Source: Kineosporia mesophila | GTDB taxonomy: Bacteria > Actinomycetota > Actinomycetes > Actinomycetales > Kineosporiaceae | Reading direction: 5' to 3' | Length of the DNA stretch: 64,000 nt | NCBI RefSeq assembly: GCF_021129235.1 | Contig: NZ_JAJOMA010000001.1 | Coordinates: 310,001 to 374,000, forward strand | Part shown: in pieces, positions 44,828-52,086 of the stretch | Layout of the letters: the number at the start of each line of letters is the position of its first letter | Position numbering within the stretch: position 1 is the first letter of the stretch | The notes under the pieces: generated by a model | The model's database searches: none | Told to the model about the DNA's origin: nothing | What the model saw: the letters and a program-made list of their open reading frames with translations, nothing else | Position numbers and translations under genes: made by a program

Positions 44828-45043
44828 TCAGGGGTTGTTGCTCAGGAAATCGGCGAGGCTTTTCGGACGCAGGTCGGTCCAGTTGGTCTCGATGTAGTGG
44901 ACGCAGGCGGTGCGGGAGTCGGGGCCGAACACGGTGCGCCAGCCGGCGGGTACGTCGACGAACTCGGGCCAGAGGCTGTGCTGGTTCTCGTCGTTCACCA
45001 GAACGAGGAAGACTCCGTCGGGGTTCTCGAACGGGTTGCTCAT
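44828..45043 (-). CDS. MbtH family protein
   Basis: A 71-residue NRPS chaperone that binds and activates adenylation domains. It has the full family pattern: [34 protein letters not shown], and the Trp-rich C-terminal [10 protein letters not shown]. The ATG overlaps the NRPS stop as ATGA and a GGAAG site lies just before. Its partner should be the adenylation domain(s) of the NRPS directly upstream. Confidence 0.96.
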
Positions 45044-48000
45044 GAAACTTCCTTCGGGGGACGGAACTGGGGGGCTGCGCGGGTGAGGCCGGTCAGGGCG
45101 CGAAACCAGGTGTCCGCGAGGTCTTCTACTGCCGCGGTGGTGAGAACGCCCTCGCACCAGGCCCATCGTACGGTGAGGCAGGGCCCGGCCGGACGGTTCT
45201 CGATCTGGGCGGTGATGGTGAGGGCGTACGGGGCGGGCTGGGTCAGCTCGGCTGCTTCGGTCTCGGGTGCGATCGACCAGTCGCCGGGCTCGGGAAAGTC
45301 GATGTGCCCCAGGTAGGTGAAACTCAGATCCGGAGTGCTGTCCTCGCCGGGGGACAGGTTCTTCCGCACCTGCGCGACGGCTGACGCCGCGGCCTCACGG
45401 GTGTCGAGCACCGCGTCCAGATCGATGCCGCCAGTGTCGAGGAACGCGGGGAATCGGCTGGTGAACTGGCCCACCGTGCGCGAGAGATCGAGCGCGGGCA
45501 TCTCGTCGCGGCCGTACCGTTCGAGCGCCACGAGAATGCCGGTTCTGCGGGACCGGGCGGGGTCACGGGGGGACGACGAAGGGCCAGCACTCCCTTCGTC
45601 GCGGGCTTTCCCCCCGTGACCCTGCCCAGCCCCGCCGTCTTCGTACCGCCGACGCTGATCGCTGACCGAAAGGGCCAGCGCCGCAAGCAGTATGTCAGTC
45701 ACCGTCGCCCCGTAGGCTGCCGGGACGGCGGTGAGCAGTGGGGCCGTGTGCTCGGCGGACAGCTCGCGACCGACCTCCAGTACGGAAGTGGTGCGATCGA
45801 CCGCCGGACCGACCGGAAGCCGAACTGTTTCACCGAGAACATCGGACTTTTGTGGCAATTCATGGACCGACCCGGTGAAGAGATCGGCCCAGCACTGGAA
45901 GGATATTCCCTCCGGTGCGAGATCGATACTACCGGAGAGGGTTTGGCTGTAGGCAATAGCCAGGTCGGACAGAAGAATGCGGTGTGAGACACCATCCGCC
46001 ACCAGGGCGTGGGTCAGGATCAGCAGCCGTCCGGGCCGTCCCCGGCCCAGGTCGAGGCGGGTCGCGCGCACCATCACGCCGTCGCGGGGGCGCAGTTCGG
46101 CCTGCTCCACCCCGGCCTGACGGGCGATCTCGGCCCAGAGCTGTTGCGGGTCGAGACCCCGCGCCAGCACCGTGCGCACCCGACACGGCCGGTGCCGGGG
46201 GGAGATCTCCAGACCGGTTGCCGTCAGCCGCGACTGCATCAGGGGGTGCGCGGCGATCACGGCGTCCAGCGCGACCTGCAGCCGTTCGGGGTCCACGTCG
46301 GCGGGAAGCTGGATCACCATCGACCGGCAGGCCTCGTCCGCCGGCAGGGGCAAGGGCAGAGGCGGGTCGATGGTGGACGTCCTCCACCCCCGCGGTGCCT
46401 CCGGCACCTCGGTTCGCGGGAGGAGCTGGAGTACGCCGTCTGCACTCCAGCGGGCCCGGTCACCGGTGCGGTACATCCGCCGCCCGGTCTGGAACGGGTC
46501 GGCCACGAAATGCCCGGCGGTTCCGGCCGGACGGTTCGGGTAGCCGTACGCCAGCCCGGTGCCGGCCACGTACAGCTCGCCGGTCACGCCCGCGGGCACC
46601 GGCTGCGCGTATCCGTCGAGTATGTAGGTGCGCAGGCCGTGGTAGCGGTGCGCGGATCGGGCGCCGGAGGAATCTCCCTGCCAGCCGTACGCGTTCACGG
46701 TGCCGTCCGGCCGATAGAGCTCGCGCACCGTCAGACCGGGCACGGCACAGGCCTTCCGCCACAGATCGGGATCGGCCCGTCCGTCGATCAGCAGCTCAGA
46801 GAGTCCGGCCTCGGGCAGCCCCGCGGCCATCAACGGTTCCAGGAGTGCGGCGGTCACGTCGAGCACATCGACGGATGCGTCCTTCAGATAGCCGGCCAGG
46901 ACAGAAGGGTTGTGGCACAGAGGTTCCGGGAGCACGTGCAACTGATGGCCGGCCAGCATCCACAGCACCGGCCCCCACGCCCGGGCGGACCCGAACGACG
47001 TCATGTGGGCCACGCGGAGTGGTTCGCCGTCCGGGTCCGTCGAGGCGGAGCGGCGTGGGCCGGCGAGGTGCACGATGCCGGCGTGCGGAAGCACCAGGTC
47101 CCGGACGATCTGGGCCGGGAGGTCCGCGTCCAGCCGGCCACCGCGTTCCCGGTCGGTCAGCGGGGAGTCGTCCTCGTCGCCCTCCAGCAGGAGCGCGGAG
47201 TCCAGGGTGAGCACGGGGGAGGCCTCGGCAAAGTGCTCGGGGTCCAGCACGTACGCGGCGCCGCACTTCAGCACGGCCAGGATCGCGGGCAGGGTCCAGG
47301 CCCGGTCGAGGTCCAGGGCCACCACCCGGCCGCGCAGGGGTCCGGCCCAGAGCAGTACCCGGGCGGCGCGGTTGCTCCAGGCCTCGAGCTCGGCGAAGGT
47401 CCAGCTGTGCTGCTCCGTCACCAGGGCGGTGGCGTGCGGGGTGAGCCGCGCCTGCCGGGAGAGGAGGTCGACGACGGTCAGGTCCAGCAGATCGAGCGGA
47501 ACCGGGCCGCCGGCGGCCCATTCCCCGGTCACCTGCTCCCGTTCGCCGGGCAGCAGCACATCGAGTTTGCTCAGCCGGGCCCCGGGCGTCTGTGCCACCT
47601 GTTGCAGCAGACGCACCAGCCGGGCGCCGAAGCCGGCGGCGGTCCGGGCGCCGAACGCCCCGGCGCGGTACCCGACGGATCCGTCCAGTCCGGGGCGCCC
47701 GAGGTCGACGACGTCGAAGGACAGGTCGCAACCGGCCGGCCCGTGTCCGATGCGCACCGGAAGACAGCTCAGGCCGGGAAGGTCCAGCGGACGCTCGGTA
47801 TCGGCCCGGTACCCGACCCGCACCCGGAAGAGCGGGCCACCGCCCAGTGCGGCCTCGAGCCGCTCGTACGGCAGGTCCTGCCGCCCGAGCGAGGCCAAGC
47901 CGGTGTCGCGCACCCGGGCCAGAACGTCGGCGAAGGCCGGATTGCCGGAGGTGTCGGCCCGCAGCACCAGGAGGTTGCTCAGGGGCCCGACCACGGGTGC

Positions 48001-51000: not shown

Positions 51001-52086
51001 GATCTCCACATCGTCCATACCGCTGGACAGTCCCTCGCCCAGTGATTCGTCGTCGAAAAGGACGACGGTGTCGAACAGCTCACCCACCCCGGCAGCCTGC
51101 TGGATCGCGGCGAGCCCGAGGTGACGGTGCTCGGGCAGGGCGTCGCGGCCGTCGCGCAGGCGGCGGAACATCGTTCCCGGGGATTGCGCCGGCTCGATCC
51201 GGATCCGCACCGGAACCGTGCTCGCGAACGCCCCGATCGCCGCCGCACCCGGCGGGCGGCCGGCCCCGGTGACGCCGAACACCACGTCGTCCGAGCCGGA
51301 CAGCGTGGCCAGCACGAGGGCCCAGGCACCCTGCACCACGGTGCCCAGATCGACCTGCTCGTCGTGGGCGAGGGCGTGCAACCGCGCGGTGAGCGCGGGA
51401 TCCAGTTCCCGCACCAGGTGACCCGGCAACTGAGTGGGTGGGGGACCCGCCGGGGTGATCAGCGTCCCCCGTTCCAGACCGCTCAGAGCCTCTTTCCAGG
51501 CCCTGAGCGCCGCCCCGGAGTCCCGCACAGTTCCGACCGGGGAAGGCGTCCCCGCCGAGGCCGGGTCGAGCAACTCACCCAGCACCGCCCGCATCGACCA
51601 GCGGTCGAGCAGCAGGCGGTGATGGGTCAGCACGAACCGGTACTGCTCGGGGCCCAGCCGGTACAGGGTGGCCCGCAGCAAGGGCGGCGCGGCCGGGTCG
51701 AACCCGCGCAGCCGGTCGTGCTCCAGCAGCCCGGCCAGCTCCTGCTCGACCGCCGCCCGGCCGTAACCCTGCGCCGGGAGCTGACGCAGGTCGATCTCCT
51801 GCCAGGGCAGGGTCACCCCCGCCGCGACCAGCGCCACGCACTCGCCGTTCTCCCGCTGGCCGAACCCGGCCCGCAGGCCCGGATGCCGGTCGAGCAGCGC
51901 CTGCGCGGCGTCGCGCCAGCGGCTCGCATCGACCGGACCCTGCAGGTCGAGCACGAGCTGGGCGGTGTGCACGTCGGGGACGTCACCGCGCTCACGCCCG
52001 CTCAGGACCTCGAAGAGGATCCCTTCCTGCGCGGGCGTCAGCGACGCCGCCGGGGTGACCGTCAGGCCGTCGGGGGGAATGAGCAC
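45040..52086 (-). CDS. degenerate siderophore-type NRPS (C*-A-PCP-C*-A*-E*)
   Basis: A 2348-residue synthetase. Domains: condensation (about 15-430), adenylation A1 (450-925), carrier with GGHSL Ser965 (935-1003), condensation (1020-1510), degenerate adenylation A2 (1535-1895), epimerisation-type domain (1905-2345). The HHxxxDG motif reads HRLLLDR (156), HRIAADE (1147) and HALVADG (2026), so the catalytic second His is absent each time. A1 keeps [11 protein letters not shown] and Asp631, but its A10 Lys is Glu916. A2 lacks the TSGSTG loop, has Ala1701 for the substrate Asp and no C-terminal subdomain or carrier. No thioesterase is present. GTG at 52086 follows AAGG, ten bases after the N-hydroxylase stop. 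Neighbours imply a hydroxyornithine siderophore. Confidence 0.9.

What the first reader, a model, noticed from the sequence alone, without database searches (positions are those of the whole stretch)
45040..52086. All condensation-family domains of the NRPS lack the catalytic second histidine
HHxxxDG is the signature of condensation and epimerisation domains. Here it is HRLLLDR (51601-51621), HRIAADE (48628-48648) and HALVADG (45991-46011). Loss in all three, inside a 7-kb frame without a stop and with normal codon use, argues against random decay alone. The protein may have moved to a non-condensing role, or may work with an outside catalyst.
Basis: partly seen in the sequence, partly recalled or inferred. 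Interest (0 to 1): 0.82.

Follow-up and report, generated by a model that had tools for sequence, protein, structure and literature searches.

The report
Shrunken siderophore synthetase without condensation
In a group of soil actinomycetes, a large iron-chelator-making enzyme has shrunk and lost the residues that join amino acids, yet its reading frame and one amino-acid-recognising domain still seem protected by selection, so it looks neither like a normal enzyme nor like a simple dead gene.

Summary
In detail: HRLLLDR, HRIAADE and HALVADG lie at the stated places. All 6 held genomes of the genus carry the locus. One relative (G003) keeps a multi-protein siderophore assembly line whose 9 of 9 condensation-family domains have the second His. 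The other five share deletions. In the window, the start of G003's second synthetase (C-A-T-C-A) is cut in the A2 core and joined in frame to the epimerisation domain that ends G003's third. The second His is lost in 9 of 10 surviving domain copies, against 58 of 336 losses at other conserved cells. A2 lost its ATP loop in 4 of 4. This is not free decay: no stops, A1 dN/dS 0.118, its pocket keeps 44 of 45 residues, while half of C1 is relaxed at 0.34. In three genomes the stop overlaps the start of a conserved mbtH gene (ATGA), which can explain the open frame. My reading: a condensation-dead remnant in which A1 is still constrained and the rest is carried as a translated conduit. What A1 does is not shown; in the window it has lost its A10 lysine.

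The parts
45040..52086 (-). reduced NRPS, C1*-A1-T1-C2*-A2*(truncated)-E*; start GTG at 52086 likely, ORF open to 52260
50761..52044 (-). C1, motif HRLLLDR at 51601-51621
   Evidence: dN/dS of the C-terminal part against G005 0.338
49315..50760 (-). A1, pocket residues DAWDTGLVD kept, A10 Lys replaced by Glu (motif at 49321-49359)
   Evidence: dN/dS 0.118
49063..49314 (-). T1, LGGHSLL with Ser present
47509..49062 (-). C2, motif HRIAADE at 48628-48648, with a low-complexity in-frame insert about 48181-48402
46420..47508 (-). A2 core without ATP loop, C-terminal subdomain and carrier domain
46327..46419 (-). in-frame junction between A2 core and E domain
45067..46326 (-). E domain, motif HALVADG at 45991-46011; homologous to the C-terminal E domain of G003 NRPS3
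45547..45635 (-). 89-nt conserved hairpin element inside the E-domain sequence
44834..45043 (-). mbtH-like gene (hit span), start codon overlaps the NRPS stop (ATGA)
52097..53548 (-). ornithine/lysine N-monooxygenase, the only match of its kind in this genome at E 0.001
53655..54599 (+). formyltransferase, 87% identical to the one in the intact locus of G003

Best explanation
The ORF is a remnant of a multi-protein hydroxamate siderophore assembly line. In an ancestor of five of the six genomes of the genus, deletions removed the first synthetase from between the monooxygenase and the second, and joined the A2 core of the second to the terminal E domain of the third (shown by comparison with G003; that it happened once is inferred). 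The product can no longer elongate peptides: C1, C2 and E have lost the second His, and A2 has lost its ATP loop, hinge subdomain and carrier (sequence shown; inactivity inferred). It is still translated and filtered by selection (inferred from open frames and dN/dS). The constrained part is A1, whose pocket for a probably basic, hydroxyornithine-like amino acid is unchanged, next to the monooxygenase that would make that amino acid. I think A1 was kept as a binder or activator of that amino acid after peptide synthesis was lost, and that the C, A2 and E stretches persist because ribosomes must run through them to start the overlapping mbtH gene. In the window's own lineage A1 activation is probably weak or gone (A10 Lys to Glu), so there the protein would be a binding scaffold plus conduit.
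For: Intact ancestor-like locus in G003, reduced loci in 5 of 6 genomes. The A2 breakpoint falls within a few residues in 4 of 4 copies that have A2; the four form a clade without G003 in the C2-A2 tree, support 97/98. H2 lost 9 of 10 against 58 of 336 other conserved cells. A1 dN/dS 0.118 (bootstrap 0.069-0.176) against C1 half 0.338 (0.254-0.572) in the G000-G005 pair. Intact Streptomyces pairs: C1-query 0.056-0.091 (5 rows), C2-query 0.065-0.090 (3), A1-query 0.043-0.093 (7), A2-query 0.039-0.111 (6), E 0.095-0.109 (2); the C and A query sets overlap. Pocket kept 44 of 45 in A1, 22 of 36 in A2. No stops in four long ORFs against at least 5 expected each. ATGA overlap with mbtH in G000, G002, G003; G001 and G004, where the NRPS ends early, have a separate mbtH start; G005 has no mbtH at the locus and E scraps in different frames.
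Against: A1 lost the A10 lysine in G000 and G005, has a changed ATP loop in G001 and G002 and YGPTE to YGAVE in G002; only G004's A1 looks whole. T1 is gone in G005 and its Ser is Pro in G002. So no one A1 activity is shared by all. Polarity alone would predict dN/dS near 1 in C1, but it is 0.34. G001's C2 keeps the second His, and one C domain of the C61 synthetase of this genome, otherwise normal-looking, has RQVLLWDG, so His loss alone does not prove a dead line. The monooxygenase tree puts intact G003 next to G000/G005 (93/92, with a very long root row), which would need repeated or reversed reduction. Only six genomes; H2 losses are not independent events, so the Fisher value is nominal. 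FecCD was not found in the G002 stretch.
Confidence: 0.48

Rival explanations
1. Pure translational conduit: the protein has no function. Its frame is kept only because mbtH, and perhaps later genes, depend on translation through it; missense change is free apart from the cost of misfolding.
For: ATGA overlap in G000, G002, G003; frame lost or shortened in the three genomes where the coupling is absent. mbtH dN/dS 0.04-0.14 in the 8 of 10 pairs that could be fitted, two of them with dS over 2.5.
Against: A1 dN/dS 0.118, close to intact A domains, and 44 of 45 pocket residues kept. G005 has no mbtH at the locus but its A1 branch is still at 0.184.
Confidence: 0.25
2. Simple decay of a siderophore pathway that has been replaced (in G000 by the NRPS cluster on contig C61), with too little time for stops to appear.
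For: Relaxed C1, lost catalytic residues, many in-frame indels (86 row-by-event gaps in protein-guided alignments, G005 left out); no FecB, FepC, FecCD or exporter matches at the locus in G000 and G005.
Against: At least 5 stops per ORF are expected at 0.1 neutral change per site, none seen in four; dN/dS well under 1; FecB, FepC and the exporter pair kept at 71-90% identity in G001, G002, G004.
Confidence: 0.17
3. The non-catalytic C-type domains have become docking platforms, as X domains of glycopeptide synthetases are, for the monooxygenase or another flavoenzyme of the locus.
For: HR in place of HH in C1 of G000, G002 and C2 of G000, G002, G004; X domains carry HRxxxDD (PMC11546977, passages). 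Conserved C1 and C2 columns mostly kept.
Against: C1 is the less constrained part; G005 lacks C2, E and half of C1; G001 and G004 lack E. The motif is not HRxxxDD.
Confidence: 0.08

Closest known systems
Multi-protein hydroxamate siderophore NRPS locus (G003; coelichelin/scabichelin-like type, name recalled)
   Same: Monooxygenase, formyltransferase, C-A-T-C-A order, terminal E, mbtH; in G003 also FecB/FecCD/FepC uptake and ABC exporters
   Different: The window copy lacks NRPS1, most of NRPS2 and NRPS3, the transporters, and the second His in all three of its C/E domains
X domain of glycopeptide antibiotic synthetases
   Same: C-type fold with His lost from HHxxxDG, no condensation (PMC11546977 and PMC8949500, passages)
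   Different: X domains carry HRxxxDD, sit between the last T and TE and recruit P450s; the motif and place do not match here
ORF18 condensation domain (streptothricin-type biosynthesis)
   Same: Second His replaced by Gln (HQxxxDM), like HQLLLDG in G001 and HQLLLDS in G004; a warning that His loss is not always loss of activity (PMC11546977, passages)
   Different: ORF18 is active with its own A and carrier partners; here the partner domains are broken
NRPS lines with an inactive A domain complemented in trans (albicidin)
   Same: A non-functional A domain inside an otherwise translated synthetase (PMC8949500, passages)
   Different: Here C, E and the second carrier are lost too

Membership tests
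Active condensation/epimerisation domain | second His of HHxxxDG | tested here: not met
   lost in 3 of 3 window domains; G001 C2 is the one of 10 reduced copies that keeps it
Active condensation/epimerisation domain | other conserved fold residues | tested here: inconclusive
   window C1 keeps 19 of 22 and C2 33 of 39 conserved columns (second His counted), E only 33 of 51
Active NRPS elongation module | complete C-A-T with working A and T | tested here: not met
   A2 lacks ATP loop, C-terminal subdomain and T; A1 lacks the A10 Lys
A domain (A1) | core motifs and substrate pocket | tested here: inconclusive
   62 of 67 conserved columns and 9 of 9 pocket residues kept in the window, A10 Lys lost
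Pseudogene | stops or frameshifts | tested here: not met
   none in 2348 codons here; G005 E scraps do lie in different frames
Pseudogene | dN/dS near 1 | tested here: not met
   A1 0.118, C1 half 0.338; omega 1 is worse by about 71 log units for the 776 aligned codons
X domain | HRxxxDD motif | tested here: not met
   HRLLLDR, HRIAADE, HALVADG
X domain | placed between last T and TE of a glycopeptide synthetase | tested here: not met
   no TE among the Pfam matches; siderophore-type neighbours
X domain | recruits an oxidase | not testable with these tools
   needs binding assays

The most novel reading that the evidence does not exclude
A genus-wide pseudo-synthetase: after loss of peptide synthesis, condensation chemistry was shed but selection kept a single hydroxyornithine-type A domain, with its hydroxylase, in most genomes its MbtH partner, and in three genomes export and uptake genes, as a minimal one-domain pathway. 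Activated N5-hydroxyornithine could close on itself to a cyclic hydroxamate without any C, T or TE domain.
Probability: 0.2. Interest if true: 0.75.

Novelty: new variant of a known kind. Interest (0 to 1): 0.5.

Why it matters
It gives a multi-genome case of how a modular megasynthase loses function: catalytic residues first, frame and one recognition domain last, with an intact relative for comparison. It makes testable whether translational coupling to a useful downstream gene (mbtH) keeps giant dead reading frames open, which would warn genome miners that an open NRPS frame does not mean a working NRPS.

Tried and rejected
Rejected: sequencing or assembly error (H2 is lost with different codons in separate genomes). 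Rejected: stops simply too rare at high GC (simulation). The pattern used demanded the second His and could not show a loss; a domain-by-domain check found 6 of 8 C61 domains with it, one RQVLLWDG and one heterocyclisation-type. Likewise the C1 and C2 panels were filtered for HH...D beforehand; the unfiltered counts are those. Rejected: a promoter in front of mbtH in G001 and G004 seemed visible by eye, but the consensus scan found 0 in both. Rejected: the 89-nt element as a dispersed repeat; one place each in the 4 genomes searched and in the loci of the two others, and the model hits 1 of 345 class genomes, the window's own (stricter filters, 12 candidates scored a genome in the rows shown, so weak matches may be lost). 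Rfam gave no hit at gathering score in six loci of five relatives and only matches far under gathering scores in window 44300-47000. A first rpoB tree was wrong because three rows were on the other strand; redone. One pairwise fit (mono G001-G004) failed and was redone. Several dS values ran to infinity; those omegas were not used. Column, pocket (A2) and gap counts leave G005 out where it lacks the domain or, for gaps, throughout. Papers: PMC11546977 and PMC8949500 seen as passages only; the rest seen as listings. I found no paper on a Kineosporia siderophore NRPS or on a condensation-dead NRPS under selection in those six searches of one open-access library.

Full report
Observation. The three motifs are at the stated coordinates. 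The ORF 45040-52260 (start probably 52086) has no internal stop. Pfam gives condensation, AMP-binding and carrier stretches, and GC3 is 0.86. Next to it lie an ornithine/lysine N-monooxygenase (52097-53548), a formyltransferase (53655-54599) and an mbtH-like gene (44834-45043). The genome is a Kineosporia relative: the best named matches are K. rhizophila and K. babensis.

Where it comes from. All 6 held genomes of the genus carry the monooxygenase locus. G003 has an intact-looking line: NRPS1 (A-MT-T plus a weak condensation stretch), NRPS2 (3614 aa; three C, A and T in the 3109 aa scanned, an E domain at its end) and NRPS3 (3733 aa; three C and a terminal E). The second His is present in 9 of 9 of these C/E domains; one has Gln for the first His. 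The window ORF matches the start of NRPS2 (62% identity) through the A2 core, then the last domain of NRPS3. G002 has the same fusion. G001 and G004 end just after the same A2 point. G005, the nearest relative, keeps half of C1 and A1 joined to an E scrap. NRPS1 is missing from between monooxygenase and NRPS2 in 5 of 5 reduced loci. A tree of C2-A2 groups the four reduced copies apart from G003 (97/98). rpoB leaves G003's place open (56/64), and the monooxygenase tree puts G003 with G000/G005 (93/92), which speaks against one single event.

Loss is targeted. At sites at least 90% conserved in a panel of related domains (27 of 74 loci) and shared with G003, the second His is lost in 4 of 4 C1, 3 of 4 C2 and 2 of 2 E copies; other such cells are lost or gapped in 10 of 84, 23 of 152 and 25 of 100 (nominal Fisher 2e-6, rows not independent). 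In unfiltered panels the second His stands in 99 of 102, 112 of 114 and 26 of 26 rows. Codons suggest at least two separate C1 losses (CGC in G000, CAG/CGG in the others). A2 lost its ATP loop in 4 of 4 and pocket residues in 14 of 36 cells; A1 lost 1 of 45. Against over-reading this: G001's C2 keeps the His; one C domain of the C61 synthetase in this genome has RQVLLWDG while 6 of its 8 condensation-family domains keep the His and one is of heterocyclisation type; and one published C domain with HQxxxDM works (PMC11546977, passages).

Selection. In the pair G000-G005 (dS about 0.3-0.4) A1 has dN/dS 0.118, the C1 half 0.338, and the monooxygenase 0.052; bootstraps 0.069-0.176 and 0.254-0.572. 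Intact Streptomyces NRPS pairs give 0.056-0.091 (5 rows, C1 query), 0.065-0.090 (3, C2 query), 0.043-0.093 (7, A1 query), 0.039-0.111 (6, A2 query) and 0.095-0.109 (2, E query); rows under 60% identity were dropped and the query sets overlap. So A1 is near normal and C1 relaxed but not free. Neutral simulation predicts at least 5 stops per ORF at 0.1 changes per site even at 88% equilibrium GC; none are seen in four ORFs.

Why the frame stays open. In G000, G002 and G003 the NRPS stop overlaps the mbtH start (ATGA). In G001 and G004 mbtH has its own start after a gap and the NRPS is short. In G005 mbtH is absent at the locus and E scraps lie in different frames. This pattern fits translational coupling; it rests on five reduced genomes and was not tested by experiment.

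What A1 may do. Its pocket has acidic positions at 278 and 331, which suggests a basic residue such as hydroxyornithine (numbering and inference recalled). The A10 Lys is Glu in G000, and G005 reads GGE at the same place before its junction; the ATP loop is changed in G001 and G002, and only G004 looks whole. FecB, FepC and an exporter pair remain beside the locus in G001, G002 and G004 (71-90% in the pairs compared); FecCD was found in G001 and G004 but not in the G002 stretch; none were found at the locus in G000 and G005. G000 has another siderophore-type cluster on contig C61 (chorismate-binding/NRPS fusion, AMP ligases, ABC exporters) with one A domain of hydroxyornithine-like code (recalled), and only one monooxygenase match, so the window's monooxygenase and formyltransferase may serve that line in trans (inference).

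Hairpin. An 89-nt element (45547-45635, minus) folds to -85 kcal/mol with flanks (z -7.55). In six pairs compared it is 83-94% identical, against 38-80% in the 150 nt on either side. It has 6 pairs changed on both sides (0 of 500 shuffles). In G001 and G004 it survives outside the NRPS frame, before mbtH. It is probably a regulatory or processing hairpin (inference).

Verdict. Real, ordinary in origin (a shortened siderophore NRPS), unusual in state (condensation-dead, open, one constrained A domain).

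Noticed in passing
window 45547-45635 (-); L096 11257-11345, L097 15288-15376, L098 11578-11666, L099 16380-16468, L100 14609-14697: An 89-nt hairpin with compensatory changes, kept in all six genomes: inside the E-domain frame in three, outside the NRPS frame before mbtH in two, after the NRPS scrap in one. No Rfam family at gathering score in six loci of five relatives; found in 1 of 345 class genomes searched, the window's own.
   Followed up: partly
G000:C61:237001-276400 (L124, L125): A second siderophore-type NRPS cluster with a chorismate-binding/NRPS fusion, AMP ligases and ABC exporters; it may use the window's monooxygenase in trans. One of its C domains reads RQVLLWDG instead of HHxxxDG.
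   Followed up: partly
window 40726-42951 (+) and 42988-44385 (+): A fused luciferase-like/FAD-binding oxidoreductase and a flavoprotein, 94% and 91% identical in G005 at the same locus; a 65% relative of the second lies in G002 within the transport block.
   Followed up: no
window 48181-48402 (-): A low-complexity in-frame insert in C2, not in the other four genomes that have C2, a sign of weak constraint there.
   Followed up: partly
G004:C8:28000-46000 (L130): Another NRPS locus with its own relatives of the window's formyltransferase (84%) and monooxygenase (56%) and an mbtH.
   Followed up: no
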